Shown piece after piece: positions 7,610 through 43,750 of a stretch of 64,000 bases of DNA. A model generated the notes under the pieces. That model was given only the letters and a program-made list of their open reading frames with translations. It ran no database searches and was not told where the DNA came from. The stretch's first letter is position 1, and each line of letters begins with the position of its first letter. The stretch lies in IMG/VR virus record IMGVR_UViG_3300009408_000001, positions 1-64,000 of that record. One strand, written 5' to 3'. Source of the DNA: a virus. Made by a program: the position numbers and the translations under genes.

Positions 7610-8203
7610 ATGAACAATGATATCTTTTACGATGAAGTCGCCAACGCCCCTTATGTAGAGTCCGGTGATAAGTCAACGGTCCTTTTGGGACTGCCTACCG
7701 ATTCGGGCGGAATCGGAAAAGTCGAGGTTTACCAGGGAACAGGACCTGGAAAGCGAGTGAAGGTATGCGAGCTTACCATGGAAATAGGGGATCGTGGGTA
7801 CGGGTTCGGTGGGGCCTTAGGACTATCTCGAAACGGAAATGTACTTGCAGTGGGTTCATCTCCACCAGACGAGGTGTTTGGAACATGTGGGACTGTGTTC
7901 TTATACCTTAAAACTGGGAAGCAGGAGTGGACAAGGGTAACCTCACTCGCTATAACTGGAACAGGACTGGAAAAAGATTACCAGTTGTTCACAGAAGACA
8001 TTGTCATTTCAAAAGGGGGGCTTACCTTAGTTATCGGTGGTGGTACATCACACTACGGGGGCTTGGTTACCTTTAACCTGGACGTTAAGAATGCAGTGTG
8101 GTTATCCACGGGTGCGTTTATAGACAAGGATTCAGGGGAAACCCAATCTGACGCTGCTGTCTCTACACTGGGGCGACTACGTGGTTTGTGGAGTAAGACA
8201 TGA
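7610..8203 (+). CDS. Beta-propeller-like (FG-GAP-type) protein
   Basis: I use the ATG at 7610; an in-frame GTG at 7601 has no better ribosome site. The 197-residue product shows two or three blade-like units of the FG-GAP type: YGFGGALGLSRNGNVLAVGSS followed by a strand with GTVFLY, then DYQLFTEDIVISKGGLTLVIGGG. It is too short to close a propeller alone and may pair with the overlapping downstream gene, which carries similar blades. The stop overlaps the next start (ATGA). It may be part of a three-gene propeller operon, 7610-9401. Confidence 0.65.
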   Translation: MNNDIFYDEVANAPYVESGDKSTVLLGLPTDSGGIGKVEVYQGTGPGKRVKVCELTMEIGDRGYGFGGALGLSRNGNVLAVGSSPPDEVFGTCGTVFLYLKTGKQEWTRVTSLAITGTGLEKDYQLFTEDIVISKGGLTLVIGGGTSHYGGLVTFNLDVKNAVWLSTGAFIDKDSGETQSDAAVSTLGRLRGLWSKT

Positions 8204-8862
8204 ACAGCCTTGCTTCCGGGGCGGTTGTTTCTTACCTCTCTGGGAGGCCAGTACCTGGGTTCCCAGTCAGCGTGTCTAAGGACGGAAACATTGCAGTGGT
8301 GGGTATGCCATATTACGGCGGAGGGACAGGTAGGGTGTTTGTCCACAGGTACGTTGACAAACACTGGACTGAAATAGCTACCCTATCTACAGACGACCCA
8401 GATGTTGGGTTTTACGGAAAGGGGGTTGGTTTGTCTGATAACGGGACTACCCTAGCCGTACTATCTGCTTCCCAGCTTCCTTCTGGTCGGCACCTTGCCA
8501 CCGCATTGGAGTGTTTTAAGTTGGGACCGGGTGGTAGACTCACGCCTATTTACACGGCACTTCTGTTCTCTAGTACACCCTGGGAATATTCCAGAGTGTC
8601 CGTATCGGATGATTCCATGGTTTGTATTTTAATGGATAAGTTCGGTGCGATGCGCGCCGTAAAACGGGTGGTCAATAGTGTGGGATATGCTTATGATCTG
8701 GACCCACCAGAACATACTGCACTTGCGGTTACTGCCCCTGTGAAGAAAGAGCCACGCTACTGGGGAGGTACACTCAGCAGCATTGAGTTCGTCTCCACGG
8801 GTTTTGTACTGGGACTTGGCTTTTGGGCAATGGAATGGCTCTTAGTTAAACTGTCGCCATAA
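8200..8862 (+). CDS. Beta-propeller-like protein with C-terminal membrane anchor
   Basis: A 220-residue protein with FG-GAP-type blades (GFPVSVSKDGNIAVVGMP with a GRVFVHRY strand, and FYGKGVGLSDNGTTLAVLSA). The C-terminal hydrophobic segment at about residues 198-216 (GFVLGLGFWAMEWLLVKL) looks like a tail anchor. ATGA overlap with the upstream gene implies translational coupling. It is probably a membrane-tethered propeller domain; a partner or ligand cannot be predicted. Confidence 0.65.
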   Translation: MNSLASGAVVSYLSGRPVPGFPVSVSKDGNIAVVGMPYYGGGTGRVFVHRYVDKHWTEIATLSTDDPDVGFYGKGVGLSDNGTTLAVLSASQLPSGRHLATALECFKLGPGGRLTPIYTALLFSSTPWEYSRVSVSDDSMVCILMDKFGAMRAVKRVVNSVGYAYDLDPPEHTALAVTAPVKKEPRYWGGTLSSIEFVSTGFVLGLGFWAMEWLLVKLSP

Positions 8863-8873
8863 AGGAAGACGAC

Positions 8874-9401
8874 ATGGAAACTCAAACCACTCCTGGGTTT
8901 TTTAAACCCCTTGACATTGAGGCGTTACCGTACCAACAATCCGGAAATGGCGAGTATGTTGTTGTCGGAACTACGGGAAGGTACGCTTCAGGTAAAGAAG
9001 TGGGGGTCTATAGGGTTACACACGGCAAGTTGTCACATGTAAAAGACCTTGTAACACGACAAGGAGATATGGGAACGAGTTATGGCGTGGTAGTGGCTAT
9101 CTCCGAGGAAGGCAACTATGTTGCTGTAGGTACTCAAGTAAAGAGTGCTGTCCGAGTGGATATCTACGTTGGCGAGGGTTTGTGGGAACACGCATCTACG
9201 GTGTACATCACCAGTGCGGACTATCGCAAAACAAAACTAAAGGTAACCTCTACCGGGGGTGTCGTGTATTCTTACGATGGCAACCCACACCTTACGTGTG
9301 GACCTCGTCGTGTGAACATGCGAAACTTGCTCGGGGTTGCATACCTCATGGGCTGCATTGGTGCAGTCCTTCATCAATTAGTTCTAACAGCCTTTCCATA
9401 G
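8874..9401 (+). CDS. Beta-propeller-like protein with C-terminal membrane anchor
   Basis: A 175-residue protein; AAGGAAGACGAC precedes the ATG. Blade-like motifs include SGNGEYVVVGTTGRYASG and SYGVVVAISEEGNYVAVGTQ. The C-terminus has a membrane-helix-like segment at about residues 149-172 (LLGVAYLMGCIGAVLHQLVL). The build is the same as its upstream neighbour's, so the two are likely diverged duplicates. Confidence 0.65.
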   Translation: METQTTPGFFKPLDIEALPYQQSGNGEYVVVGTTGRYASGKEVGVYRVTHGKLSHVKDLVTRQGDMGTSYGVVVAISEEGNYVAVGTQVKSAVRVDIYVGEGLWEHASTVYITSADYRKTKLKVTSTGGVVYSYDGNPHLTCGPRRVNMRNLLGVAYLMGCIGAVLHQLVLTAFP

Positions 9402-9409
9402 GAGACATC

Positions 9410-9661
9410 ATGGCAAAGTCCGAAGTCAAGAAGAACATCCCCGTTACAAAAACAAAGCCGAAGAAGACCCCACTCGGTTCCATGGTCGCTGGGTTAGTCC
9501 GAGAAGGGTTAAGTAAGTACCTGAAGACGGGTGGTGTGATTGCGATCCTGGTCGTGTCCGCACTGTATCTAACCGCATCTACCGTTTGTGACCTCAACCC
9601 TGAAATCACAGCGTGTGTTTACGTGAGTGATTCTATTCCAGCACCTACACTGGAACCATAG
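9410..9661 (+). CDS. Small membrane protein with basic N-terminus
   Basis: An 83-residue frame preceded by AGGAGACATC. The first 22 residues are Lys-rich (VKKNIPVTKTKPKK), followed by a membrane helix at about residues 42-57 (VIAILVVSALYLTAS) and an acidic, Cys-containing tail. The positive-inside rule predicts a cytoplasmic N-terminus. It closes the propeller operon and is followed by a terminator. Family unknown. Confidence 0.65.
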   Translation: MAKSEVKKNIPVTKTKPKKTPLGSMVAGLVREGLSKYLKTGGVIAILVVSALYLTASTVCDLNPEITACVYVSDSIPAPTLEP

Positions 9662-9669
9662 TAAGTGAG

Positions 9670-9697
9670 CCGCTGACTTATAGTCAGTGGTTTTTTA
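9670..9697 (+). terminator. Intrinsic terminator
   Basis: Stem CCGCTGACT (9670-9678) / AGTCAGTGG (9682-9690) with one G-T pair, loop TAT, then six T. The T-tract is followed directly by ATGC, the tail shared by one class of terminators in this window. Confidence 0.9.
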
Positions 9698-9714
9698 TGC
9701 CGCATGCTGGTATT

Positions 9715-9828
9715 ATGAACCCACTTAGGAGAAACACGCATGACGACGACCGTGTGGCCAAGATTGCAGTTGCTGCAACACTGGAAGGTATCGAACTGGC
9801 ACGACTGGTAAATACCCATGCTAGTTAA
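9715..9828 (+). CDS. Possible small protein
   Basis: A 37-residue frame (MNPLRRNTHDDD...) with normal amino-acid texture but only a weak ribosome site. A second ATG at 9740 in another frame has a good AGGAG spacing but gives only 23 Trp/Gln/His-rich residues. At most one of the two is likely real; the longer frame looks more protein-like. The 83 bases from its end to the next gene hold no feature I can support. Confidence 0.25.
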   Translation: MNPLRRNTHDDDRVAKIAVAATLEGIELARLVNTHAS

Positions 9829-9911
9829 CAGAGAACCACACTGGCAGCACTTAGAGATATTCTTTTCACATAGACGTAATGTCTAACACACTGGTAAACA
9901 GAGGAAGTAAA

Positions 9912-10613
9912 ATGGGCGACAACGACGAAGTAACAATCGAACACCCTCGGGACGAAGGCATGTATGTGTTCACCTACTCTACTGCGGAGCATGGCGTAAC
10001 TTCACTACGGGTTATGGATAAGAAGTTTAAAGTACCACCGAAGTCAGCCACAATGATAGTAAGGGAGAAAACGAATTACTTCCACATCATCCGACAGGAC
10101 GGTGAGGGGTTCTTGGTGGAGCAGGGTGTACCCACTCGCCTGTATCCTTGGGCAGGCGATATACTGGTCGATTACAATGGGGACGGAGGTGTACTGACTC
10201 TGGACGATGTTGGTTTGTCTACCTTCCGATTACCCAACGGGATCAAATACCCAGTTTATGACACTTGTGTGGAGGAAGCCGTTGCAGTTAGACGGTACGG
10301 TACCATCCTGTGTATTGTTGGTAGTACAGGTCAGGTGGCTTTCATTGACATGCTGGACTTTAGGGTGTTGTCGGTAGTTCAGATGGAAACACCTCTAGAG
10401 TACAGATGTGTCTTCTTAGCCAAAGAAGACATGTTCGGCCGTATTTCGGTAACACAGATGTCTAAGCCAATGCCAGGAAGTAGTTTGTCAATGAACTACA
10501 ACTTTACATCGTTTCACTTAATCCCTGGTTGGTGGAGTGGAAAGAAGGTAAGTCGGTATCTGATGTCTAAGTTTGTTTCAGCCGTGTACCGTGTACGCGG
10601 GTTCTTCAGATAG
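9912..10613 (+). CDS. Hypothetical beta-rich protein
   Basis: I use the ATG at 9912 because AGAGGAAGTAAA precedes it; an in-frame ATG 11 codons upstream has no ribosome site. The 233-residue soluble product is beta-rich, with a repeat-like alternation of Gly and Asp turns (VDYNGDGGVLTLDDVG; YGTILCIVGSTGQVAFID) reminiscent of WD/FG-GAP propeller blades but without the canonical motif. The C-terminus is basic (SKFVSAVYRVRGFFR) and possibly amphipathic. It ends 8 bp before a strong terminator. Confidence 0.6.
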   Translation: MGDNDEVTIEHPRDEGMYVFTYSTAEHGVTSLRVMDKKFKVPPKSATMIVREKTNYFHIIRQDGEGFLVEQGVPTRLYPWAGDILVDYNGDGGVLTLDDVGLSTFRLPNGIKYPVYDTCVEEAVAVRRYGTILCIVGSTGQVAFIDMLDFRVLSVVQMETPLEYRCVFLAKEDMFGRISVTQMSKPMPGSSLSMNYNFTSFHLIPGWWSGKKVSRYLMSKFVSAVYRVRGFFR

Positions 10614-10621
10614 CATGAACA

Positions 10622-10649
10622 GGAGGCCCTTAACGGGGCCTCCTTTTTT
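10622..10649 (+). terminator. Intrinsic terminator, GGAGGCCC class
   Basis: Stem GGAGGCCC (10622-10629) / GGGCCTCC (10636-10643) followed by six T and the tail CTTTGCCGTTTCAGCC. Close copies of this hairpin occur at about 20229, 41973, 42455, 60851, 61252 and 61674, usually just before a copy of the promoter motif. Confidence 0.92.
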
Positions 10650-10671
10650 CTTTGCCGTTTCAGCCATTATT

Positions 10672-10710
10672 AAGAACCATATTACCCTAATGATAACACG
10701 CCCGTGTTAT
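10672..10710 (+). promoter_or_regulatory. CATATTACC promoter motif with stem-loop (copy 1)
   Basis: AAGAACCATATTACCCTAATG is followed by ATAACAC (10693-10699), loop GCCC, GTGTTAT (10704-10710), an AT-rich spacer and GGAGATTTAAATT before the ATG at 10734. Homologous blocks stand before at least ten other genes in the window. The conserved core resembles the TATATTAC early promoter element reported for phiKZ. The inverted repeat would lie near the 5' end of the transcript. Confidence 0.75.
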
Positions 10711-10733
10711 TTAAATTTTTGGAGATTTAAATT

Positions 10734-11183
10734 ATGTCTGATGTTAAATTGTATTTGGTTCGGGGTCTACCTGGTTCAGGTAAGACCACACATGCCCATA
10801 ATAGAATCGCTGCCTTCAATGGGTCTGCGGTACTGGTCGAAGCCGACCAGTTCTTCATGAAAGGAGGACTGTACGTCTTCGACCCAAAAAGACTTAAGGA
10901 AGCACATGCGTGGTGCCTCTCCGAGGCACATCGCCACCTCCTACTTGGGAGTGACGTGTACGTGGCAAACACGTTCATCCAAACGTGGGAGATGGCACCC
11001 TATGTTAAACTGGGATTTCCGACCACGGTACTCTCCTGCAAGGGTGAGTTCACCTCGGTACACGATGTACCTCAACATGCGATCGACCGCATGAAGGAAC
11101 GATGGGACTCTGACGAGGCGATTGCCAAAGCGTTAAGGCCAGTCATGGAAATGACAAAGGCCCTTCGTGCGATTGAGGTATAG
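10734..11183 (+). CDS. P-loop kinase of the polynucleotide kinase-like AAA_33 type
   Basis: A 149-residue P-loop protein. The Walker A motif GLPGSGKTT lies at residues 11-19, and a phosphate-acceptor-side acidic motif VEADQFF follows at about 35-41. The segment YVANTFIQTWEMAPYV and the C-terminal helix VPQHAIDRMKERW match the compact kinases related to T4 polynucleotide kinase and N4BP2-like proteins. It probably phosphorylates a nucleic acid 5' end or a nucleotide; substrate unknown. It sits alone between a strong promoter motif and the next leader, suggesting early independent expression and possibly a part in RNA or DNA repair. Confidence 0.85.
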   Translation: MSDVKLYLVRGLPGSGKTTHAHNRIAAFNGSAVLVEADQFFMKGGLYVFDPKRLKEAHAWCLSEAHRHLLLGSDVYVANTFIQTWEMAPYVKLGFPTTVLSCKGEFTSVHDVPQHAIDRMKERWDSDEAIAKALRPVMEMTKALRAIEV

Positions 11184-11185
11184 TA

Positions 11186-11252
11186 CACCGTGACCATGAG
11201 CAATTGTGCCCATGGCGCATTGATATATTACTGCTCTTACTGAGCAAAGGAT
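11186..11252 (+). promoter_or_regulatory. Leader region with diverged promoter motif and GAGC hairpin
   Basis: This 5' region contains ATGAGCAATTG, also found in the leader at 62225, then GATATATTAC, and a small hairpin GCTC (11233-11236) TTACT GAGC (11242-11245). The 20-mer GCTCTTACTGAGCAAAGGAT at 11233-11252 occurs identically at 36143-36162 before another gene and carries the ribosome site AAAGGAT. The hairpin immediately before the ribosome site could modulate translation. Confidence 0.5.
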
Positions 11253-11258
11253 TTAAAC

Positions 11259-12164
11259 ATGCATACATTCACAAGCTGGACAGCAGAAACCGTGCTATCG
11301 GATAACTTCTGGGAAGAGCTGAATGCCACCGCCCCTAGTCTGTTCGGGGAGGTTAAGGCCGCCTTTAGCGGGAACTACTTCCACCTTCTTCCCGAGTTGG
11401 CAGCCGATGTAATGGTGGCTTACAGCTCGCCGTGTACGATCCCATCTGCTTCCCCAGCACCAGCTGGGACTAAGGTCCCCCTCGCCTCCACCATCGGGCG
11501 TGCGGGAGGAAGCATCGTAGGCCGAGTTCGTTTAGCAAAGTATCAGTATCCTCCACAGGTCATCGAGATCATCCTCACCGGTGGTGGCAGTCTGAGAATC
11601 CAGGAGGCCCTGAAGGCGAATGGAGACACTTCCCTGACACACATACGTCAAGTCCTCACAGGCAAGTGGTCCAAATACCCCGTACAGTACCTAGCCAAAT
11701 TGCACGTTAAGTCCAAACCGACAGTATCCCCAGAGGACAAACGGGCCATGCTGGAGGCCATGGGTGGTGATCTCGGGACAATGGGGGCATTGCCTTTACG
11801 GGAGGCGGCGGAGTACTTCGCCGCAAAAACAATGGGGCCTGTGATGGCCCAGCTGATGAACACTATGTTCGAAGGAGACGACTTCGTGCCGTCACCCAAA
11901 CTGCTAGAGAAGGCAAATGAATTCTCATTAGCAGTATGTGTAGACAAACTGCTAATTAGTGAATGGGTATCCTTTTATGAGGAGAACAAGACATACGTCG
12001 AGGTGGCAGGTGGTGCGGCAGTACCACTTATTACAGAAGTACCAGAGGAAAACGATGGGGGTACGACAGTACCTCCAGCCGAAGGAACCCCGACGGAAAA
12101 GAATGCGAAACTTGACGATGAACTAATTGAAGCATTGCGGGACAGTATGTCCGGTAGGAAGTAA
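11259..12164 (+). CDS. Hypothetical protein with acidic C-terminal tail
   Basis: A 301-residue soluble protein between a structured leader and a terminator, so a single-gene transcription unit. It has an N-terminal helical region, a Pro/Ala-rich linker near residue 65 (SPAPAGTKVP), a Gly-rich stretch, a mainly helical core and a flexible acidic Thr/Pro/Glu tail from about residue 255. Residues about 85-145 (KYQYPPQVIEIILTGGGSLRIQEAL...HIRQVLTGKW) could form a DNA-binding helix-turn-helix, but this is weak. Family unknown. Confidence 0.65.
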   Translation: MHTFTSWTAETVLSDNFWEELNATAPSLFGEVKAAFSGNYFHLLPELAADVMVAYSSPCTIPSASPAPAGTKVPLASTIGRAGGSIVGRVRLAKYQYPPQVIEIILTGGGSLRIQEALKANGDTSLTHIRQVLTGKWSKYPVQYLAKLHVKSKPTVSPEDKRAMLEAMGGDLGTMGALPLREAAEYFAAKTMGPVMAQLMNTMFEGDDFVPSPKLLEKANEFSLAVCVDKLLISEWVSFYEENKTYVEVAGGAAVPLITEVPEENDGGTTVPPAEGTPTEKNAKLDDELIEALRDSMSGRK

Positions 12165-12170
12165 CAGGAT

Positions 12171-12200
12171 AAAGGGGCCCTTCGGGGCCTCTTTATTTTT
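12171..12200 (+). terminator. Intrinsic terminator with UUCG loop
   Basis: Ten-pair stem AAAGGGGCCC (12171-12180) / GGGCCTCTTT (12185-12194), one G-T pair, closing a TTCG tetraloop, followed by ATTTTTT and the usual TGCCGTTTCAGCC tail. Confidence 0.9.
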
Positions 12201-12219
12201 TGCCGTTTCAGCCATTATT

Positions 12220-12258
12220 AAGAACCACATTACCTTAATGATAACACACCCGTGTTAT
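12220..12258 (+). promoter_or_regulatory. CATATTACC-type promoter motif with stem-loop (copy 2)
   Basis: AAGAACCACATTACCTTAATG, then ATAACAC (12241-12247), loop ACCC, GTGTTAT (12252-12258), spacer and GGAGATTTACC before the ATG at 12281. Nearly identical to copy 1 except for the loop. Confidence 0.75.
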
Positions 12259-12280
12259 TTATTCTAAATGGAGATTTACC

Positions 12281-12495
12281 ATGGTTAAATCCAGCAATGG
12301 CACAACCACCACCCCATTTACTTTAACGGTTTGGAAGGCATTATTCCAAACACCCGTGAAAGGGTAGTTAATAGCATCGGCGTCCTCGTTGTGAAAGACA
12401 ATGACGTTTACGAGTTGGTCGGGGTAGCGAGGGGTGGATCCGAAGAGCAGTACCTTCTGGATCGCCGCCGTTTGCAAACCCTCTTAAGACTTTAA
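12281..12495 (+). pseudogene. Small early gene with an apparent -1 frame disruption
   Basis: A full promoter and GGAG ribosome site lead to ATG GTT AAA, but that frame stops after 28 codons at 12365-12367. The overlapping third frame is open from just after codon 2 to the TAA at 12493-12495 and looks protein-coding over its last 58 codons (FNGLEGIIPNTRERVV..., ending DRRRLQTLLRL) yet has no start codon. Restoring one A in the run AAATCC at 12286-12291 would join the ATG to this frame and give a product of about 71 residues. This is either a real frameshift or a homopolymer sequencing error. Confidence 0.6.
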
Positions 12496-12531
12496 CTGCC
12501 CCGTGAATAAACCATGGGGTTATTGGAGTAT

Positions 12532-13095
12532 ATGACGATGGGGACCAAGAAGTTACCGTTAGCGGTACTTGGCGAAATCCTATCCCCTACATCAAAGTCA
12601 CATGACCTGCACCTATCGGAGGACAGGTCTACTTTTCTGTCGGTAGTTACCCTAGAGGGGTCTAACGTTAGAAAGGTAAGGACATTCCATGATGATGGGT
12701 ATGGGTATCGTGAACAAGGTACGATCGGGGTAGCTGATCCAGAGAGCTACAGAGGGGCAAGCTTCGCAACACACTGTGCAATGACAACGGGTGGTGCATA
12801 TGCCCTAGTCGGGTCTAGGATAAGTTCTGGACTGGTCCAGGTTCCGTCTCTCATCCTCTTTTGTAGGGATAGGGGTCGTTGGACAAAAACGTTTGAAGCC
12901 ATATTGCCACATGAGAAACCCGTTGAATCCAGCATGTATTCGCTAGGTGTTATGTCTGGCGGTACACACGTTTGGATGACGGTTAAATTCCGTGGGGATA
13001 ATCACCTCACAAAACATGTGTACATTTACACCGATGAATACGGATGGCACAAGTCCTCCGTATCAAAGGTACTACAGGAGAAGAAGTATGTTTGA
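12532..13095 (+). CDS. Hypothetical beta-rich, propeller-like protein
   Basis: The start is uncertain among ATGs at 12514, 12532 and 12538; GGAG at 12525 favours the latter two. The roughly 187-residue product has blade-like units (DLHLSEDRSTFLSVVTLEGS; ATHCAMTTGGAYALVGSRIS; SLGVMSGGTHVWMTVKF) with hydrophobic strands between Gly/Asp turns, like the FG-GAP-type proteins nearby. It overlaps the next gene by 8 bp, so the two are probably coupled and might form one propeller. Confidence 0.6.
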   Translation: MTMGTKKLPLAVLGEILSPTSKSHDLHLSEDRSTFLSVVTLEGSNVRKVRTFHDDGYGYREQGTIGVADPESYRGASFATHCAMTTGGAYALVGSRISSGLVQVPSLILFCRDRGRWTKTFEAILPHEKPVESSMYSLGVMSGGTHVWMTVKFRGDNHLTKHVYIYTDEYGWHKSSVSKVLQEKKYV

Positions 13096-13972
13096 TTTAG
13101 AAAAAATGCAACGCACATTACCCGGTATTGCCAGTGACGTTTTAGGGGGGCAGCCGGATGGGATTGCTAACTCCGTAATCCTGGATGACACGCTAGGTTA
13201 TGGCCTTCCAATCGCGTACCTACAGGGTGAGTACGCTGAGGTATATTTCTACCACGAAGATTGTAACACGATTTCCTTCCTTAGAACCATCCCACTTAAA
13301 ATGGTACCCAACCCAGTGGATCTTGACATTGTTGATGACATGCTGATCGTCGTTGGTGAAAGCCTGGTCTTTATCTTGGACCTTGTTACTGGCGGGGTTA
13401 TCCGAGAACTCACCATGGGTCGAGCCCTCTTCGGTTGCATTAGCGAGGAGAACGCCGCTAACATTGCATTGACCACCACATCAGAGGGGGATGGCAGCGT
13501 GAACGGTGGTAGTGCCAACTATGACACCTTGGACATCATTGATGCGGGTACAGGGGAGTTGGTTTACTCTCCCTACTTACCAGAGGGTATGTCGACCTTG
13601 GGCGTGACACAGGTAAGTGGTGGCGGATTTGCGGTGGAGATGTCACCGGACGATATGTGTTCCAGTCGTATCGTAGTACCCGTTTACCAGAACAAACAGG
13701 GTGTTTGGAAAACACTACCCATGGGTATTCCAAAGTACGGGGTGGTTGGTAGTGAGCCACTGTTTAAGTCCGCCAGTATGGAGATTTTAGAGGCTTCCAG
13801 TCTTGCAGATACAGACTGTTACGCATACTGCCTCACCGACGACGCCAACGTCACTTGGATCTGGTTCTGTACTGAAGGTGGAAATGCGATGCCTCCCACT
13901 GCTGTCAGACGTGGAGAAAAGTGGCCTGTATGGCTCACGCACGCGCTCGGTTACGATGAGTCTGGCAAGTAA
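13088..13972 (+). CDS. Hypothetical beta-propeller-like protein
   Basis: The ATG at 13088 is preceded by AGGAGAAGAAGT inside the upstream gene. The 294-residue product is acidic and beta-rich with repeated strand patterns (VDLDIVDDMLIVVGESLVFILDLVTG; ISEENAANIALTTTSEGDG; VSGGGFAVEMSPDD), consistent with a six- or seven-blade propeller lacking strict FG-GAP calcium motifs. No signal peptide or membrane segment. It is one of the propeller-like series in this window. Confidence 0.6.
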   Translation: MFDLEKMQRTLPGIASDVLGGQPDGIANSVILDDTLGYGLPIAYLQGEYAEVYFYHEDCNTISFLRTIPLKMVPNPVDLDIVDDMLIVVGESLVFILDLVTGGVIRELTMGRALFGCISEENAANIALTTTSEGDGSVNGGSANYDTLDIIDAGTGELVYSPYLPEGMSTLGVTQVSGGGFAVEMSPDDMCSSRIVVPVYQNKQGVWKTLPMGIPKYGVVGSEPLFKSASMEILEASSLADTDCYAYCLTDDANVTWIWFCTEGGNAMPPTAVRRGEKWPVWLTHALGYDESGK

Positions 13973-14057
13973 CACAGTACGTACGCGTACGGTGGTATTT
14001 ACCACAATCGCTCTACTCCTGGTGTGGGTAGGGCTTCCTTGGGTACTAACAGAATAG
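13956..14057 (+). CDS. Tiny single-span membrane protein
   Basis: A 33-residue frame overlapping the end of the previous gene by 17 bp. A basic head (MSLASNTVRTRT) precedes one membrane helix at about residues 13-30 (VVFTTIALLLVWVGLPWV). The ribosome site is weak. It is the first of two consecutive minimal membrane peptides. Confidence 0.4.
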   Translation: MSLASNTVRTRTVVFTTIALLLVWVGLPWVLTE

Positions 14058-14064
14058 GACGGTT

Positions 14065-14160
14065 ATGAAAGGGTTACTTGTAAACCAGGTGTGGCAGTGG
14101 GCACATGTTGGGGTGGTGGTGGTGTATTTAGTCATCACGGCCATTTGGAAGTTAGTATGA
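14065..14160 (+). CDS. Tiny single-span membrane protein
   Basis: A 31-residue frame with AGGACGGTT upstream. MKGLLVNQVWQWAH is followed by a strongly hydrophobic helix VGVVVVYLVITAIW. Its TGA overlaps the next start (ATGA), which supports expression as part of the operon. Confidence 0.45.
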   Translation: MKGLLVNQVWQWAHVGVVVVYLVITAIWKLV

Positions 14161-14480: not shown

Positions 14481-14481
14481 C

Positions 14482-36061: not shown

Positions 36062-36081
36062 TAAGGTTGGATCAAGCCGGA

Positions 36082-36125: not shown

Positions 36126-36142
36126 GCATTATATTAATCACC

Positions 36143-36162: not shown

Positions 36163-36168
36163 ACCCAT

Positions 36169-36764: not shown

Positions 36765-36769
36765 TAAAC

Positions 36770-36794
36770 GACCGGGTGTAACACTCACCCGGTC
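36770..36794 (+). other. Intergenic hairpin
   Basis: Perfect 9-bp stem GACCGGGTG (36770-36778) / CACCCGGTC (36786-36794), loop of seven; followed by AAGGAG, so it lies just before the next ribosome site. No T-tract. Confidence 0.6.
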
Positions 36795-36809
36795 AAGGAG
36801 TATGCTATA

Positions 36810-37718
36810 ATGAGTAAATCCCGCGCACCAGTATTTTCCCAGTCGGCTGCACCGTCTGGCCCATTGTCCATCCACCCACTTCCCGTCGGGCGGAGTGGCC
36901 ATGTCGAAGTCCGAACCGCCAACGGGCAAACCCGCCTGGTGGTCAAGCCAGTAAAACGCAATACCTATATCTCCATCCGGACACTAAGTCCGGATGAGCG
37001 TTATCAGAGAGGCTTCTCCACGGTCTCTGATTGTGGTAGATATTTCGCCTTCGGGCATGTAGAAAACAATAAGAAAAGGGAGAGAGCAATCGCTGTCTTA
37101 CTTTACTCCAGTACCGGTCGGTACTACGGAGTGGTACGTCAACTTGACTCCTCAAGGGGAGTCGAGGTCCTCACCGCTGAAGAGATCACCGCGATCACTG
37201 GTACAATCCACGAGGCGGCCACAACACCGCCCAATCTGGCTAATGTGGACCTGGGGAAGTATTCCTCGTCCATTGGGTCGATGCTTAACCCTCTTCTTCC
37301 GGACATTTCAACCCCCCAACAACTATGTTACGGAGCGTTCCTTCGCTCCGGTGTAGAAGGCGGTGCATACCTCCACCTTGATCTGGTTGACCCAATGGGC
37401 GAAAGCCTGTTAAAGGAACCACTTAAGGTCATAGCGAGATCAGATGCTGTGGCATCAGACGACAGTACTGTGGTCATTACCGTCAGTGCCGTCATGTTCC
37501 ACTCACAGATTATGGAGATTATGAAAGTCCACATTCTGTCGGACGGACACCTGTGGCCGGTTGCAGAGGTGTCTCTTGCTAAGGGCGTTCGTGCCAACAT
37601 GGCGGTGGCAACCGCTGTTGGTAAAGCAAGTTTCCTCCTCGAGGCTGCAGCCTTGATAAAGACTGATCTCCCCGGATGTTCAGGCATTGCGCCGTATTCC
37701 GTTTCGGATATCGCGTAA
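36810..37718 (+). CDS. Hypothetical beta-propeller-like protein
   Basis: A 302-residue soluble protein, basic and Pro/Ser-rich at the N-terminus. Repeats such as RGFSTVSDCGRYFAFGHVEN and DAVASDDSTVVITVSAVMF look like degenerate propeller blades. No membrane segment; family not recognised. Expressed alone before a strong terminator. Confidence 0.55.
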   Translation: MSKSRAPVFSQSAAPSGPLSIHPLPVGRSGHVEVRTANGQTRLVVKPVKRNTYISIRTLSPDERYQRGFSTVSDCGRYFAFGHVENNKKRERAIAVLLYSSTGRYYGVVRQLDSSRGVEVLTAEEITAITGTIHEAATTPPNLANVDLGKYSSSIGSMLNPLLPDISTPQQLCYGAFLRSGVEGGAYLHLDLVDPMGESLLKEPLKVIARSDAVASDDSTVVITVSAVMFHSQIMEIMKVHILSDGHLWPVAEVSLAKGVRANMAVATAVGKASFLLEAAALIKTDLPGCSGIAPYSVSDIA

Positions 37719-37721
37719 TTA

Positions 37722-37752
37722 AGAGGAGGGGATATCCCCTCCTTATTTTTTT
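37722..37752 (+). terminator. Intrinsic terminator
   Basis: AGGAGGGG (37724-37731) / CCCCTCCT (37736-37743), loop ATAT, then TATTTTTTT. Confidence 0.92.
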
Positions 37753-37767
37753 CCAATGGAGTACAGT

Positions 37768-38181
37768 ATGTATACGGAGTTAGAGAGACTGGTAATAGAT
37801 ATGGCGGAAATGTTACAGTTACTCCAGAAAGGAGTTCACTGGATTGCAGATGGGGAAAAACTGACAGATAAAAATGTCACTGCGTTACCCTGTCCAACCC
37901 TTACCGAGATCATAAAAAAACTGCAGCAGGCTACCTTCCTGACTAGTCCTGAGAAGCTGGCCGCTTTCGCAAGAGGAGAGTACAATGGTACAGATCTACT
38001 CAATGTTAAAGAGGATATCGTGACCATTGACAATGCGCAGGTTGGCATCCGGGTAGCAATGACACTGGGAAATGTAGCACCGAGACACAAAGCGATCCTT
38101 AAGAACATGTACAATTTCGAAGGGTCGCTTACCTGTACAATTGGTCCACCAGAACCACCCATGTCCAATACCATACACTAG
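37768..38181 (+). CDS. Hypothetical helical protein
   Basis: Start set at ATG 37768 by GGAGTACAGT; an ATG four codons earlier lies on top of the ribosome site. A 137-residue mostly helical protein (ELERLVIDMAEMLQLLQKG; EIIKKLQQATFL) without membrane segments. It leads a run of propeller-like genes (38191-41968). Function unknown. Confidence 0.6.
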   Translation: MYTELERLVIDMAEMLQLLQKGVHWIADGEKLTDKNVTALPCPTLTEIIKKLQQATFLTSPEKLAAFARGEYNGTDLLNVKEDIVTIDNAQVGIRVAMTLGNVAPRHKAILKNMYNFEGSLTCTIGPPEPPMSNTIH

Positions 38182-38190
38182 GAGAAACAG

Positions 38191-39267
38191 ATGCCCTCTA
38201 GTATATCGTACCGCCTAAATCCCACTGTAGCAAAATCCCTTACTACCTTTAATGCATCGGGAACCCACATGGCGGTGTTTGTCACACATGTAAGAAGGGA
38301 ACCCGTTATAAAGGTGTACCAAAATAACACTGCTGGAGAGTGGGTGGAGATACATGTCATCACCTCAAACCTCACTCCCGTGCTGTCCATGTCGGGTGAC
38401 GGAAGTGTTTTGTACTTCTTGAGGGGCGGCGTTACCAGTGGACTGTTTTCACTTAACCTGAGTACCCTTGGTGAAACACGGGTGGGTGAAATCCTACCGT
38501 ATACCACTGCGATGATGGTATCTCACTTAGGGAACACCGTAGTTAGACATCTTAACATGGGAATTGGGTACGCCCCAGAGGTGTGTATCGAACGAATAGA
38601 TGCGGGCGTTTCCATTGACACGGTCACGGTGGAAGGAGATTCCTGTACAGTTTCAAACAGTGGGGATACCTGTGTTGTAAGTTACCCCTGTCGAACTGGA
38701 GTACCCGGAGACAGTCGGGTCATAGAGTGTGTTTCTAATACGTGGAAGGTAGGTTCCGCTACACTGGGTTCCATGTTGACAGGACGCACTTCAAACGACC
38801 ATGGTCTCGCTGCAATCTCTGGAGATGGGAATGTCATATTTGCTGTAATGGTAATCGTGAGTTCCAGAGGGCGACAAAAGGTAAGTGACGTAGAGACGCT
38901 TGTTCAATATAAGCGAAGTCCAACTGGCTGGCAGTACGTGGGGAGTGTTACTGGCGGAGGGGCCTGTGGTAAGGAACCTGTCCTTAAACCGATCAGTGCG
39001 ATAGTGTGTTGCAACCGAGGGGCACACCTGGTGATGTACGGCCTTATGGAAGCTTCATTACCCGCAGGAAGGTTGTTTAAACAGGATGGCAATGGTAGTT
39101 GGTCCAAACACGAACTCCCAGTCAGTACTGAAAGTGTACTGAGTCAGTCACGTGAAACACCCTGTAAGCCAGGACTTTACGTAACCGCTAAAGAAGCGAC
39201 ACTCGAAATACGTCACACCTGTGAGGGTGGAATGTCAAGTGTCTTACTGATGCTTGATTCACTATAG
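38191..39267 (+). CDS. Beta-propeller-like protein
   Basis: A 358-residue soluble protein with about six or seven blade-like repeats: LSMSGDGSVLYFLRGG, MMVSHLGNTVVRHL, TVSNSGDTCVVSYP, AAISGDGNVIFAVMVI, each with the S-x-D/N-G-x-x turn of FG-GAP-type blades, separated by W/Y-rich strands. No signal peptide. Probably a complete single propeller. The operon continues without terminators to 41968. Confidence 0.7.
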   Translation: MPSSISYRLNPTVAKSLTTFNASGTHMAVFVTHVRREPVIKVYQNNTAGEWVEIHVITSNLTPVLSMSGDGSVLYFLRGGVTSGLFSLNLSTLGETRVGEILPYTTAMMVSHLGNTVVRHLNMGIGYAPEVCIERIDAGVSIDTVTVEGDSCTVSNSGDTCVVSYPCRTGVPGDSRVIECVSNTWKVGSATLGSMLTGRTSNDHGLAAISGDGNVIFAVMVIVSSRGRQKVSDVETLVQYKRSPTGWQYVGSVTGGGACGKEPVLKPISAIVCCNRGAHLVMYGLMEASLPAGRLFKQDGNGSWSKHELPVSTESVLSQSRETPCKPGLYVTAKEATLEIRHTCEGGMSSVLLMLDSL

Positions 39268-39276
39268 GAGAACAAA

Positions 39277-39666
39277 ATGAAGAGAAGATTTACAAACACA
39301 GTTGCATTGTTAGACAACTTGATTGACGGTTTCCCCATTCCGGTACTAGGGGTACACAACGGTAGGATCATACGGGTATTCGCTAAAGAATTCGAGGAAC
39401 CTTTCCCGGGTGTGTTACTGGACCCAAACAAGGATGACTGGTTTTACAATGGGATCCCTTCTGGAGGTGGCATTGTTACATGTGGTGACACCCTGTATCT
39501 GGTTTCCAGAAGGACGAATCGCGTATTTTCAACAGGCGGGGATACAATCACGTATGTATCCGTTGACCCACATACTGAGGAGATCACTGTGAAAACAGAA
39601 GGTGGGACGACGGTGTCCTTCTACGATGTGACATGTCCGGTAGACTTACCAGGGTGGTCAGGATGA
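39277..39666 (+). CDS. Small beta-rich protein, possibly a partial propeller
   Basis: A 129-residue protein preceded by AGGAGAACAAA. Strand-turn pattern (GRIIRVFAKEFEEPFPG; GGGIVTCGDTLYLVSRRTN; VSVDPHTEEITVKTEGGTT) suggests two or three propeller-like blades. Its stop overlaps the next start (ATGA), so the two products may assemble together. Confidence 0.55.
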   Translation: MKRRFTNTVALLDNLIDGFPIPVLGVHNGRIIRVFAKEFEEPFPGVLLDPNKDDWFYNGIPSGGGIVTCGDTLYLVSRRTNRVFSTGGDTITYVSVDPHTEEITVKTEGGTTVSFYDVTCPVDLPGWSG

Positions 39667-40814
39667 TTGTCATTCCCGATCCAGTGACGAGCGAATACAT
39701 CAGCCGAATCGGCTGTATCTCTATCGCAATGGACGGTACTAGAGTGGTGGGTTGTCCGGACACAAATGAGGTGTTCATCGAATACCCGGACCCACTGGTT
39801 AGACCCACCCACCACATTGGCCTTTCCGACCTTACGGGGTACGGTATTGCAGTAATGATATCCCCTGACGCGAATGTGTTGGCAGTGGTATCATATGAAT
39901 CACCGTTTCTCACTCCAGTTGAATCTGACTTAAATCCGTCTTTCATATCCCTGTACGTGTACCAGTACGTGGGGGGCGTGTGGCAGGAACGGGAGGTACA
40001 TGAATCTATTTGCATGGCAACTCCCCATGCTGGCATGTTGGACATGTCGGATGATGGATCCACTATTGTCCTGTCCGGTTCACTGGAGTACGAGGTACAT
40101 GGTTCTTCAGATCCAGCAGTGGGTGGTCAAGATGTCATTGAATTCAGTGATAGGTCCGCTGAAGTTATCCTCCTTACATCGGTTGACCTGGTAACGTGGT
40201 CCACTACAAACCGCAGCATCGCGGGTAACATTCGTGGACTGCCTCAAAACTTCGATACACCTGCGTTCATTAACTCTACCGGAGATGAACTGTACACGGT
40301 ATGCTGTTGGTCTACTGGAGGTAGTTCGGGGTCAAGACTTTATGTATCTAAGCTAGTGGGTGGCTTCTGGTCGGCACCTCAGTTGGTGATATCCGAAATA
40401 GGTGGAAACTTATCCCTTTCGGCAAACAAGACAGTTGGGGTTTGCTCCTATGTTGAAACCGCACCTATCAACGGTCACTTCTGGTCACTGGCGAAAGGTC
40501 CGGTAGGTTGGGCACAGGTGAACATTCTTCCAGACCCTGCGGCACGTTTGGATCCACTGATGTTAGGTAAGAGTGTTAAGGCTGGGTTGGCTGGTAGGAT
40601 CATGGCAGTAACCTCTAGATTCGATGAAGCGGTTTCGGGTAACATATCGCTGTTCACCGCCGGTGGAGCCTGGACACAGGCTACCATACAAACACCGGAT
40701 TCACAGCTGGGTCATTTCGGACACTTGCTACAGGTAGACGACAGAAACCCTTTAGAGACAATTCTTTTAACCACACATGACAAGACGCTGTATACGTACA
40801 CTGTTGCAGTCTAG
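39663..40814 (+). CDS. Beta-propeller-like (FG-GAP-type) protein
   Basis: A 383-residue protein starting in the ATGA overlap. Blades include CISIAMDGTRVVGCPDTNE, GYGIAVMISPDANVLAVVSY, MLDMSDDGSTIVLSGSLEY, FINSTGDELYTVCCW. Gly/Asp-rich turns match FG-GAP calcium loops. No signal peptide or anchor. It is related in style to the tail-fibre propellers of this phage but lacks their N-terminal virion module. Confidence 0.7.
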   Translation: MIVIPDPVTSEYISRIGCISIAMDGTRVVGCPDTNEVFIEYPDPLVRPTHHIGLSDLTGYGIAVMISPDANVLAVVSYESPFLTPVESDLNPSFISLYVYQYVGGVWQEREVHESICMATPHAGMLDMSDDGSTIVLSGSLEYEVHGSSDPAVGGQDVIEFSDRSAEVILLTSVDLVTWSTTNRSIAGNIRGLPQNFDTPAFINSTGDELYTVCCWSTGGSSGSRLYVSKLVGGFWSAPQLVISEIGGNLSLSANKTVGVCSYVETAPINGHFWSLAKGPVGWAQVNILPDPAARLDPLMLGKSVKAGLAGRIMAVTSRFDEAVSGNISLFTAGGAWTQATIQTPDSQLGHFGHLLQVDDRNPLETILLTTHDKTLYTYTVAV

Positions 40815-40822
40815 GAAACACG

Positions 40823-41968
40823 ATGGTAACAATAAACATTGACCCACCCCAGCCAGTGGACGGCATGAGGTTTGGATCGCACTTGGCAATGAGTCGATGT
40901 GGAAGGATTCTAGCAGTAGGTTCGGACGGATTGTGGAGTAAAGACCACAATGTGTTCCAAATCGATTTATATGAGTTACACGGGGAAGAGCGGGTTAAGC
41001 ACTTACAGCAAATCACTGTAAAGCTCCCAACAATCTTTCCTGTAACAGAGGTTGGTGGAATGGCACTGTCTGAACACGGCAGTACCCTAGTAGTGTCGGT
41101 GGGGGGTAACATCATTACCTATTCCAACTTCACACAGTCAACCACCTGGAATGTACGCCAGTTTTACTCCCTTGTAAAACCATGGAGTCGCATTCGGAAC
41201 TGGAAGGTTAGCTGCAATACTAACGGCACTATTTGTACCGCAACGCCCACGTGTCTATTTCGAACAGAGAGTGGCAGTGGTCCGATGTTATCGCTGTTTA
41301 AGAAGTCAAATTGGGAAGTGAAGAGTAGAGAAACAACGTACTTCCCTATGGCTGGCTCTTCTGCATCTGAAGAACTGGATACTTGTTTGTCTGACAACGG
41401 TAAAACATTGTTACACCAGTCGATAGTAGGTCGTGGTACCGGTGAAGGACGTCGCCGTATTTCCACATCCCGTCGAGACGGGGGAGGAGAATGGTTGTAT
41501 GACCAAAGCTGTAATGTTCCAAGTGGTGACCCATGGCCAGGTCGGAGTGGACCAGGGATTGCATTGTCCGGTAACGGTAAGGTAGCATACGCGCTTGATA
41601 CGGGACCTGCCTTGTTTAAGATGAAGGTGTCTCGACAGAAGACTACAGCGAGAATCCGGTGTACATTACCAACGTACGCATACACCGGAATGCTCGGTTG
41701 CAGCGTGGATGGTAGATTTGTGTTTCTAGGGTATACCGCACCTAAGGGAGGAAGCTTCACAAATAACATCCTGTACGGGGAGATAGATGAACAGGACCCG
41801 GAAGCAACTCCCTTTAAAACACTTACATCCTTTCCGGGGTACAGTGGCTCAAAACAAGAGTTCGTCGTAGATAGGAATGGCGCTACAATTGTAGTTTCGG
41901 ACCGACACCATGGAGTAGAAGGACACCAATACGGGAGGGTTCATCTCCACCTTACCAATCGGTTGTAA
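40823..41968 (+). CDS. Beta-propeller-like (FG-GAP-type) protein
   Basis: A 381-residue soluble protein with blades MRFGSHLAMSRCGRILAVGS, GMALSEHGSTLVVSVGGN, TCLSDNGKTLLHQS, GIALSGNGKVAYALDTG, GCSVDGRFVFLGYT and VVDRNGATIVVSDRHHG, giving roughly six or seven. The final fragment YGRVHLHL would close the last blade. It is the last gene of the 37768-41968 run and is followed by a terminator. Confidence 0.72.
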   Translation: MVTINIDPPQPVDGMRFGSHLAMSRCGRILAVGSDGLWSKDHNVFQIDLYELHGEERVKHLQQITVKLPTIFPVTEVGGMALSEHGSTLVVSVGGNIITYSNFTQSTTWNVRQFYSLVKPWSRIRNWKVSCNTNGTICTATPTCLFRTESGSGPMLSLFKKSNWEVKSRETTYFPMAGSSASEELDTCLSDNGKTLLHQSIVGRGTGEGRRRISTSRRDGGGEWLYDQSCNVPSGDPWPGRSGPGIALSGNGKVAYALDTGPALFKMKVSRQKTTARIRCTLPTYAYTGMLGCSVDGRFVFLGYTAPKGGSFTNNILYGEIDEQDPEATPFKTLTSFPGYSGSKQEFVVDRNGATIVVSDRHHGVEGHQYGRVHLHLTNRL

Positions 41969-41970
41969 AC

Positions 41971-41998
41971 AGGAGGCCCTTCACGGGGCCTCTTTTTT
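41971..41998 (+). terminator. Intrinsic terminator, GAGGCCC class
   Basis: GAGGCCC (41973-41979) / GGGCCTC (41986-41992) followed by six T and the TTTGCGTTTCAG tail. Confidence 0.9.
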
Positions 41999-42019
41999 CT
42001 TTGCGTTTCAGACATTATT

Positions 42020-42058
42020 AAGAACCACATTACCTTAATGATAACACCTCCGTGTTAT
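42020..42058 (+). promoter_or_regulatory. CATATTACC-type promoter motif with stem-loop (copy 7)
   Basis: AAGAACCACATTACCTTAATG, ATAACAC (42041-42047), loop CTCC, GTGTTAT (42052-42058), then TTTGGAGATACTAAG before the ATG at 42082. Confidence 0.75.
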
Positions 42059-42081
42059 TTAATTCATTTGGAGATACTAAG

Positions 42082-42395
42082 ATGACACATGCTGAACAGG
42101 CAGAACGGATACGCCATTTGGAACTAATGGTAACATCCCTAAAGTTTGACCTAGCCGAAGTACGAGGGGAGCTACGTAAGGAATTACTGGATCACAGCGG
42201 ATCCCTGGACAACCACACCTTGAGCGACAAGCGACACCTAAAGCTAGCCACAGCGACTCCCTGGACAACCACACCTTGAGCGACAATCGATACCTAAAAC
42301 TAGTCACACAAGCACTGGACACGGTTAAAGCAGTAGAGGCTAGAGAGGCGATAAATGGGATACCATCCTACATCAACCCTGTGGAAAAGGACTAG
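42082..42395 (+). pseudogene. Small coiled-coil gene disrupted at an internal duplication
   Basis: From the ATG the frame encodes a helical, charged protein (RIRHLELMVTSLKFDLAEVR) for 65 codons and stops at 42277-42279. The normal-looking sequence continues in another frame: HSDSLDNHTLSDNRYLKLVT and on to a TAG at 42393-42395. The switch lies where a 56-bp unit is duplicated in tandem. One extra base, for example a third C in GCC at 42247-42249, would restore a single frame of about 104 codons. Either a true frameshift caused by the 56-bp (not 57-bp) duplication or a homopolymer sequencing error. Confidence 0.6.
42193..42304 (+). repeat. 56-bp tandem duplication
   Basis: Copies at 42193-42248 and 42249-42304 both start CACAGCG and share TCCCTGGACAACCACACC and the following sequence with a few substitutions. 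Unit length is not a multiple of three, so the second copy is read in a different frame. Confidence 0.9.
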
Positions 42396-42454
42396 GTCAC
42401 CAGTCACCGGGGTTCCCAGCAACAAAGACGATACCGATAAACCAACATAAATAG

Positions 42455-42483
42455 GAGGCCCCTTTACGGGGCCTCTTTTTTTT
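42455..42483 (+). terminator. Intrinsic terminator, GAGGCCC class
   Basis: GAGGCCCC (42455-42462) / GGGGCCTC (42468-42475), loop TTTAC, then eight T. Confidence 0.92.
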
Positions 42484-42532
42484 GCCCATATCCGCATAGA
42501 AATACTATGCACAACAACAAGGATACATTGTT

Positions 42533-43750
42533 ATGGCTACCAAGTCTCATTGGGACACCGTTACTGACGTGGCTCCTGACACTGAGTTTACCGGAAAAGA
42601 TTCCCTTAGGATCTGTATGGCGATCTCAGCTAATGGTCAAGTTTCAGTAACGGGGAATCCAGGCGATGGCGTTGTGCGCGTACTTAGGTTGTTCCCTGAC
42701 TCAGGGTGGGAAGAGACTGCGTCTCTCTCTGTAGATCAGGAAGGTCCTCTTCAGAAGTCTGCATTTGGCACTTCTGTAGGGATTTCATCTGATGGTACCA
42801 CGATTGTAGTGGGTGATCCCGATGACGACGAACGTGCGTTGCACGGTGGATCAGCGTATGTATTTACATACCGACGAGGCGAGTGGAAGCTTTCAGGAAA
42901 GTTTTATCCGACTGACCTACATTTTGCTGCTAAGTTTGGGCATTCTGTCAGTATCTCGGGTGATGGTAAAGTGGTAGCGGTTGGGGCATACATGAGTTCC
43001 AACAGTTCTGATTACGCGGGAGATGTATACCTGCTTAGGAAAGGATTGTTTGGTTGGGACGAGTTGTGCATATTGTCCCCACCTGTGCCACGTACGGGTT
43101 CTTTTTTTGGCATCAGTGTGTCTCTATCCTTTTCGGGTAAAGAGCTCCTGGTGGGCGCTGATGGAAGCGAGCGGGCATACATCTATGGGACGTATGACTT
43201 CTCCAGGTGGATTCTCATAAAAGAACTTGTTCCAACTGCTAAGGGTAAGCACAACTTTACTCAGTTTGGTGCCTCTTGTGCGATTGCTGCGGACGGGAAG
43301 TCTGCGGTAGTAAGTGCGCATACAGAAGACATCAGGCAAGTGATTGGTGCTGGTGCAATTTACCATTACATTTCCTGCCGTGACCAGTGGGTCCAACGTT
43401 CTAAGATTTCGTTAAAGAATGGAAAGACGTTGGATTATTTTGGGTATAACCTGGATCTGTCCGGAGACGGAAGTGTCCTTGTAGTAGGTGGATACGCCTC
43501 TGTTGTAGATGGTGTTTGTGATCGGGGTGGTTATGTCATGCGTCTGGAATCTGGAGGTTGGGAACTGGATCGTAAGATCTCTCCAACGGACATTAAGGAA
43601 GATTCTGTTTTATCCTACGTAGCGGCAGTTGACCATTCTGGAGAAACGGTGGCATTAGCAAGAGGAGTCTCAACAGCTCCACTTGAGAAAAATGACCTCG
43701 CTAGCAATCTTCTCCGGCAACAGCTAAAGGACAAGCAAAGGAAGGCATAA
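42533..43750 (+). CDS. FG-GAP beta-propeller protein
   Basis: A 405-residue soluble protein, the clearest stand-alone propeller here. Seven FG-GAP-type blades are visible: ICMAISANGQVSVTGNPGDG; FGTSVGISSDGTTIVVGDPD; FGHSVSISGDGKVVAVGAYM; FGISVSLSFSGKELLVGADG; FGASCAIAADGKSAVVSAHT; FGYNLDLSGDGSVLVVGGYA; and a last degenerate one near YVAAVDHSGETVALARG. The C-terminus is a charged helix (LLRQQLKDKQRKA). No signal peptide, anchor or virion module. Strong similarity in motif to the fibres at 46916-52730 suggests common descent. It may bind the phage's own receptor or modulate fibres. Confidence 0.85.
   Translation: MATKSHWDTVTDVAPDTEFTGKDSLRICMAISANGQVSVTGNPGDGVVRVLRLFPDSGWEETASLSVDQEGPLQKSAFGTSVGISSDGTTIVVGDPDDDERALHGGSAYVFTYRRGEWKLSGKFYPTDLHFAAKFGHSVSISGDGKVVAVGAYMSSNSSDYAGDVYLLRKGLFGWDELCILSPPVPRTGSFFGISVSLSFSGKELLVGADGSERAYIYGTYDFSRWILIKELVPTAKGKHNFTQFGASCAIAADGKSAVVSAHTEDIRQVIGAGAIYHYISCRDQWVQRSKISLKNGKTLDYFGYNLDLSGDGSVLVVGGYASVVDGVCDRGGYVMRLESGGWELDRKISPTDIKEDSVLSYVAAVDHSGETVALARGVSTAPLEKNDLASNLLRQQLKDKQRKA

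What the first reader, a model, noticed from the sequence alone, without database searches (positions are those of the whole stretch)
7610..43750. Large expansion of FG-GAP/propeller-like proteins outside the tail-fibre operon
At least ten plus-strand genes (7610, 8200, 8874, 12532, 13088, 23140, 38191, 39663, 40823, 42533, perhaps 16017 and 36810) encode propeller-like repeats without a virion anchor module. Most lie in early- or middle-looking operons. The same blade type forms the heads of the three tail fibres at 46916-52730. This suggests recruitment of receptor-binding propellers to intracellular or envelope roles such as receptor masking, decoys or fibre maturation.
Basis: partly seen in the sequence, partly recalled or inferred. 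Interest (0 to 1): 0.7.

Follow-up and report, generated by a model that had tools for sequence, protein, structure and literature searches.

The report
Fibre-head propeller genes in assembly operons
A giant virus of bacteria carries eight extra genes related to the propeller-shaped tips of its tail fibres; most sit beside genes for building the particle, and some encode proteins with a tail that probably fixes them to the cell membrane, so they look like assembly parts rather than the receptor-masking decoys first proposed.

Summary
The window is part of a 197.5-kb phiKZ-like jumbo-phage record. The three fibres at 46916-52730 carry seven FG-GAP_2 blades each. Eight of the twelve other named genes are related to them: 42533 (clear), 7610 and 8200 (strong), 8874, 12514, 38191 and 39663 (supported through orthologues), 40823 (weak). 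Four (13088, 16017, 23140, 36810) have no support. Of 48 phiKZ-like records searched, only one sister phage has FG-GAP_2, and it keeps the same eight genes in the same order. Only 12514 follows an early promoter, in both phages. 8200, 8874 and four sister proteins end in a C-terminal membrane anchor, and none has a signal peptide, which argues against surface masking. A model of 8200 shows about three blades, a linker and a terminal helix. Best reading: fibre-head propellers recruited as late assembly factors. No functional data exist. A second relative independently has anchorless copies of its different, retroelement-diversified fibre heads, some behind early promoters, so a receptor-related role stays open.

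The parts
4235..6595 (+). portal protein homologue (PHIKZ129), probable head of the cluster A operon
   Evidence: phiKZ E 7e-61; PDB 9xpe PHIKZ129 E 2e-58 and 11ed 'Portal Protein gp36'
7072..7221 (+). tiny ORF with a hydrophobic segment, cluster A
   Evidence: ORF list; hydrophobicity judged by eye
7226..7396 (+). tiny ORF with a hydrophobic segment, cluster A; the sister has 138460-138657 in a similar place
7402..7524 (+). tiny ORF with a hydrophobic segment, cluster A
7610..8203 (+). stand-alone FG-GAP_2-like partial propeller (ORF opens at 7601 with GTG); sister orthologue 138679 has a C-terminal anchor, this one does not
   Evidence: blade HMM E 8e-5 to 1e-15; orthologue E 6e-8; hhalign 97%
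8200..8862 (+). partial propeller of about three blades with a C-terminal transmembrane anchor (residues 196-218); orthologue 139212
   Evidence: blade HMM 4e-7 to 1e-17; AF2 model; Foldseek to integrin and WD40 propellers; hydropathy
8874..9401 (+). partial propeller with a C-terminal transmembrane anchor; orthologue 139827 also anchored
   Evidence: phmmer to 7601 5e-7, orthologue 8e-10, hhalign 96%, hydropathy
9410..9661 (+). small one-span membrane protein, likely counterpart of sister 140355-140570
   Evidence: sequences; relation judged by eye and position
9670..9690 (+). terminator-like hairpin ending cluster A; the sister has one at 140601-140629 in the same place
12215..12250 (+). phiKZ-like early promoter upstream of 12514 (motif anchored at 12227); sister promoter at 141592
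12514..13095 (+). stand-alone partial propeller in an early unit, no membrane anchor; orthologue 141663
   Evidence: orthologue E 7e-7, hhalign 94%, blade HMM on orthologue 7e-4 to 1e-11
   Evidence: hhalign 0.2%; no PDB or Pfam relative
   Evidence: hhalign 0.1%; faint Pfam WDR19 propeller E 0.013; possible sister counterpart 144533 faint ACSF4 propeller 0.054
   Evidence: hhalign 0.3%
   Evidence: hhalign 0.1%; promoter
37723..37744 (+). terminator-like hairpin before the cluster B unit
38191..39267 (+). stand-alone soluble propeller-like protein, size of a full propeller; orthologue 176514
   Evidence: orthologue 2e-15, hhalign 95%; AF2 failed (pLDDT 33)
39663..40814 (+). stand-alone soluble propeller; orthologue 177608
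   Evidence: orthologue 2e-23, hhalign 98% over 307 columns
40823..41968 (+). probable stand-alone propeller, weak; positional orthologue 178781
   Evidence: blade HMM 2e-3 to 3e-7, hhalign 32%
41971..42477 (.). cassette between two terminators: early promoter 42027 and small ORFs; absent from the sister, where 178781 and 179899 are 2 bases apart
42533..43750 (+). stand-alone FG-GAP_2 propeller, six blades detected and room for a seventh, no fibre N-terminal domain; positional orthologue 179899
   Evidence: Pfam E 8.9e-28; blade map
43814..44737 (+). central-spike homologue (PHIKZ164)
   Evidence: phrog_3216 E 2e-72; PDB 6orj/9xph PHIKZ164 E 6e-37
46916..48634 (-). tail fibre with seven FG-GAP_2 blades
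48643..50307 (-). tail fibre with seven FG-GAP_2 blades
51024..52730 (-). tail fibre with seven FG-GAP_2-like blades

Best explanation
These are diverged paralogues of the phage's own fibre-head propeller, recruited as late morphogenesis factors. Shown by sequence: eight non-fibre relatives; same order in a sister phage; seven of eight in units without an early promoter that contain the portal gene (cluster A) or lead into the central-spike gene (cluster B); C-terminal membrane anchors and no signal peptides in cluster A; a three-blade model for 8200. Inferred: cluster A proteins sit in the inner membrane with the partial propellers in the cytoplasm, pair or oligomerise to complete a propeller, and hold portal or prohead intermediates at the membrane, where capsids of nucleus-forming phages assemble, much as T4 portal initiation at the membrane needs gp40. 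Cluster B proteins are soluble full-size propellers that act in tail-tip or fibre assembly, or are minor tail components. The early member 12514 would have a separate job.
For: Homology. One-to-one order in the sister. Tight operons in the sister: gaps of 6, 24, 3, 21, -55, 18 and 15 bases from the portal gene through cluster A, and 11, 21, 2 and 1 bases through cluster B into the spike gene. Portal and spike identity. Early promoters mapped in both genomes, none at the head of these units; terminators close cluster A at the same place in both. C-terminal anchors: 8200 and 8874 are two of only three such genes among 129 of this size in the record, and 137731, 138679, 139212 and 139827 in the sister also end in an anchor. 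Fold. Capsids of nucleus-forming phages assemble on the inner membrane (PMC12908238); T4 portal initiator at the membrane with gp40 (PMC9958956).
Against: No expression, localisation or proteomic data. Co-transcription with virion genes is inferred from spacing; a late promoter motif was not proven. In the window the cluster B unit is interrupted by an early cassette and terminators, so its timing there is less sure. The stand-alone genes diverge much faster (21-28% identity between the two phages) than the portal (36%), spike (57%) or fibres (33-50%), which is unusual for core assembly factors. Topology comes from hydropathy alone. The structure job for 38191 failed.
Confidence: 0.38

Rival explanations
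1. Minor virion proteins: the stand-alone propellers are built into the particle, for instance as extra head subunits on fibres or baseplate, without any assembly or membrane role.
For: Same fold as the fibre heads and same operons as portal and spike. Cluster B proteins have the size of a whole propeller. PhiKZ gp131C is a propeller at the baseplate periphery (PMC4901313).
Against: No N-terminal anchor; cluster A members are partial propellers with membrane anchors, unlike known virion fibres.
Confidence: 0.25
2. Intracellular binders of host targets: receptor precursors on the inner face of the membrane, or defence proteins. The phage reuses receptor-binding heads inside the cell to limit superinfection or to keep progeny fibres free.
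For: Fast divergence. One member, 12514, is early in both phages. Relative G002, with an unrelated fibre head, also has anchorless head copies, two groups of them behind early promoters, and they carry the variable repeats of the same retroelement as its fibres.
Against: Seven of eight genes are not behind early promoters, and superinfection control should act early. No export signal. G002 copies are close to their fibres (86% DNA identity for one) and may have arisen separately.
Confidence: 0.22
3. Receptor masking or surface decoys.
For: Fold shared with the presumed receptor-binding heads.
Against: No signal peptide or N-terminal hydrophobic stretch; anchors at the C-terminus; units shared with portal and spike.
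Confidence: 0.06
4. A store of spare heads: the genes are donors for recombination with fibre heads, or decaying relics of it.
For: Some blades of 42533 group with blades of the 51024-type fibres in a poorly resolved tree; G002 shows head copies in several places.
Against: Other copies are far too diverged for recombination; intact frames and gene order are kept between two distant phages.
Confidence: 0.09

Closest known systems
FG-GAP_2 repeat family (Pfam PF14312)
   Same: 42533 and the three fibres score far above the family cut-off
   Different: the other seven genes fall below the cut-off and are linked only through the phage's own blade profile and sister orthologues
PhiKZ gp131 tail-tip protein, C-terminal seven-bladed propeller (PDB 4GBF)
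   Same: phage of the same broad group; the fibre operon here has relatives of PHIKZ131 and PHIKZ135; seven blades per fibre head
   Different: no sequence match of fibre 48643 to any solved structure; the FG-GAP_2 family is absent from phiKZ; gp131 is a virion fibre, these are anchorless
T4 gp40 and membrane-bound portal initiation
   Same: a phage membrane factor working with a portal at the inner membrane, as proposed here for cluster A
   Different: no sequence relation tested; analogy of setting only
Integrin alpha-chain FG-GAP propellers
   Same: among the best Foldseek matches of the 8200 model
   Different: 8200 has about three blades and a C-terminal anchor, in a phage; TM-scores are low (about 0.4)
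DGR-diversified C-type-lectin-like fibre heads (Mtd type)
   Same: relative G002 has fibres and anchorless copies of this head
   Different: different fold from the window's propellers; no reverse transcriptase in the window's record or in the sister

Membership tests
FG-GAP_2 (PF14312) | score above the curated cut-off | tested here: met
   42533 and three fibres
FG-GAP_2 (PF14312) | the other seven genes above the curated cut-off | tested here: not met
   they are homologous by custom profile only
beta-propeller fold | four-stranded blades | tested here: met
   8200 model has about 11-12 strands in three blades, top matches are propellers; moderate confidence (pLDDT 69)
beta-propeller fold | closed ring of blades | not testable with these tools
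   8200 is too short alone; oligomer prediction not available; 38191 model failed
phiKZ-like / Chimalliviridae phage | phiKZ-type DNA polymerase, multi-subunit RNA polymerases, portal, sheath, tubulin | tested here: met
   (PhuZ relative 127465 at E 1e-9)
phiKZ-like / Chimalliviridae phage | chimallin (nuclear shell protein) | tested here: inconclusive
   no match to PHIKZ054 at E 1e-3; 136122-137333 lies in its place; chimallin is divergent and was not searched further
superinfection-exclusion or receptor-masking protein | export signal or surface location | tested here: not met
   no strongly hydrophobic N-terminal segment in any candidate of the window; no dedicated signal-peptide program was run
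PhiKZ gp131-type fibre | N-terminal virion attachment domain plus propeller | tested here: not met
   42533 starts close to the propeller; the others show no such domain

The most novel reading that the evidence does not exclude
Some jumbo phages keep anchorless copies of whatever fold their fibre heads use and deploy them inside the infected cell: propellers in the window and its sister, retroelement-diversified lectin-like heads in G002. They would act as intracellular binders of receptor precursors or other host targets, a new use of receptor-binding domains.
Probability: 0.17. Interest if true: 0.85.

Novelty: new variant of a known kind. Interest (0 to 1): 0.52.

Why it matters
Fibre heads are thought of as virion parts for adsorption. 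Here the same fold has spread into portal and spike operons, with membrane anchors, in two distant phages, and a relative with another head fold shows a parallel spread. If confirmed, this would show that receptor-binding domains are reused inside the cell, and would give handles on how phiKZ-like phages start capsid assembly at the membrane, which is poorly understood.

Tried and rejected
Pfam and PHROGs on the stand-alone genes: no family except for 42533. Single-protein scans of IMG/VR with 42533, fibre 46916 and spike 43814 found no relatives; alignment queries did. INPHARED has no close relative of 42533 or fibre 48643. PDB sequence search with a fibre found nothing, and with the 13088 pair only chance hits. 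AF2 of 38191 failed. A blade tree of 63 rows was largely unresolved. A look for late TATG promoters by eye was suggestive for 42533 and 43814 but was not tested statistically. Early promoters as drivers of clusters A and B: rejected from the map. A retroelement in the window's record: not found.
Full report
Setting. The window is bases 1-64000 of a 197,530-base virus record that may be a fragment. Its genes match phiKZ throughout: portal, sheath, terminase, DNA polymerase, RNA polymerase subunits and a tubulin relative. The spike protein 43814 is at most 39% identical to those of named phages. Two closer relatives were found in IMG/VR through an alignment of that protein: G001 (IMGVR_UViG_3300013233_000093, 222,906 bases, 57%) and G002 (IMGVR_UViG_3300042255_000023, 195,544 bases, 59%).

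The observation. Fibres 46916, 48643 and 51024 carry seven FG-GAP_2 blades each. Outside the fibres, Pfam sees only 42533. A profile built from the phage's own blades was searched against all 222 called genes of the record with 2,220 decoys. It adds 8200 and 7601 clearly, and 39663, 40823, 38191 and 8874 less clearly. The same profile, without any sister sequence in it, picks out the positional orthologues in G001 and nothing convincing in phiKZ or G002. Pair profiles against the fibre propellers support six genes at 94-98% and 40823 at 32%, and give under 1% for 13088, 16017, 23140 and 36810, like the 20 controls; 42533 needs no such test. The count is therefore eight. 16017 and its possible counterpart give faint hits to other propeller families, so a different propeller type there is not excluded.

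Fold. AlphaFold2 with eight aligned relatives models 8200 as about three blades (residues 23-158, mostly above pLDDT 70), a disordered linker, and a helix at 196-218. Its best PDB matches are mostly propellers, among them integrin alpha chains and WD40 proteins, and its viral matches include FG-GAP proteins. The model of 38191 failed and is not used. Proteins of 175-220 residues are too short for a closed ring, so pairing or oligomerisation is expected but untested.

Gene order in the sister. 7601, 8200, 8874, 12514, 38191, 39663, 40823 and 42533 correspond in order to 138679, 139212, 139827, 141663, 176514, 177608, 178781 and 179899. Six pairs have direct matches (E 7e-7 to 2e-23); 40823 has only position, and 42533 matches its counterpart weakly (E 1e-3), being closer to the fibres. 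Identities are 21-28%, against 36% for the portal, 57% for the spike and 33-50% for the fibres. The set is rare: of 48 phiKZ-like records searched, only G001 has FG-GAP_2. Two more distant phiKZ-like records have it inside large proteins of other layout.

Timing. A phiKZ-like early promoter was found by enrichment upstream of genes: TTATTAAGAACCAYATTACCTTAMTGATAACAC, 25 sites, all on the plus strand, best score of a shuffled control 2.9 bits against 23 or more. G001 has 26 sites of a related motif. None stands at the head of cluster A (7610-9661) or of the unit 37756-41968. 42533 is separated from the early promoter at 42027 by a strong terminator. 12514 follows an early promoter at 12227, and its orthologue follows one at 141592. 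Cluster A follows the portal gene: 4235 matches solved PHIKZ129 and a solved 'Portal Protein gp36'. Cluster B leads into 43814, which matches PHIKZ164 of PDB 6orj and 9xph, known to me as the phiKZ central spike.

Membrane anchors. 8200, 8874 and sister proteins 137731, 138679, 139212 and 139827 end in a hydrophobic helix within four residues of the C-terminus. No candidate of the window has a strongly hydrophobic N-terminal segment. Such tail anchors normally leave the domain in the cytoplasm (established knowledge). Among 129 genes of similar size in the record only three have this feature. Small membrane ORFs lie between them.

Mechanism proposed. Capsids of nucleus-forming phages assemble on the inner membrane (PMC12908238), and T4 starts its head from a membrane-bound portal with the help of gp40 (PMC9958956). 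Membrane-anchored propellers made with the portal could serve there; soluble propellers made with the spike could serve in tail-tip or fibre assembly, or be minor tail proteins. This is inference from gene position. PhiKZ gp131C shows that phages of this group use a propeller at the baseplate (PMC4901313).

A parallel case. G002 has no FG-GAP_2. Its fibre heads are Lcl_C/C-lectin-like. It has six anchorless copies of that head outside the fibre operon, in two groups behind early promoters at 104255 and 107641. It also has a reverse transcriptase (176683-177816) and a template repeat (176550-176674); 92 of 104 mismatches between template and targets fall on template A, the mark of a diversity-generating retroelement, and the targets include fibres and anchorless copies. 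G020 has one further stand-alone Lcl_C protein beside its Lcl_C fibres. So anchorless head copies occur in lineages with unrelated head folds. That keeps a receptor-related intracellular role open, with the caution that the G002 copies are young and early while most of the window's are old and not behind early promoters.

Verdict. The expansion is real but smaller than stated, conserved, and placed mostly in portal and spike operons rather than early ones. The best-supported reading is recruitment of fibre-head propellers as late morphogenesis factors (about 0.4). Nothing functional is shown.

Noticed in passing
G002: L178:5550-5674 (template), L178:5683-6816 (reverse transcriptase), targets in L173, L174 and L178: A diversity-generating retroelement in a phiKZ-like jumbo phage with targets in three fibre-like genes and six anchorless head genes; 92 of 104 mismatches at template A. 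No reverse transcriptase of this family in the window's record, the sister or 24 other large-phage records, most of them phiKZ-like.
   Followed up: partly
record-wide; window 10679, 12227, 18518, 30058, 36091, 42027, 60507, 60905, 61314: Strong early-promoter motif with a TATTAC core, 25 sites on the plus strand, often exactly 25 or 54-55 bases before a start codon.
   Followed up: partly
60561-61647: Three tandem paralogues (60561, 60930, 61339), each with its own early promoter.
   Followed up: no
42195-42290: A short direct duplication inside the small early gene after promoter 42027 seems to split it into two overlapping ORFs.
   Followed up: no
L005:122-1333 (record 136122-137333): A 403-residue protein sits where phiKZ has chimallin (between PHIKZ052 and PHIKZ055 relatives) but shows no match to it.
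   Followed up: no
L006/L007, record 174317-178879: Three large internal-head-protein paralogues in tandem.
   Followed up: no
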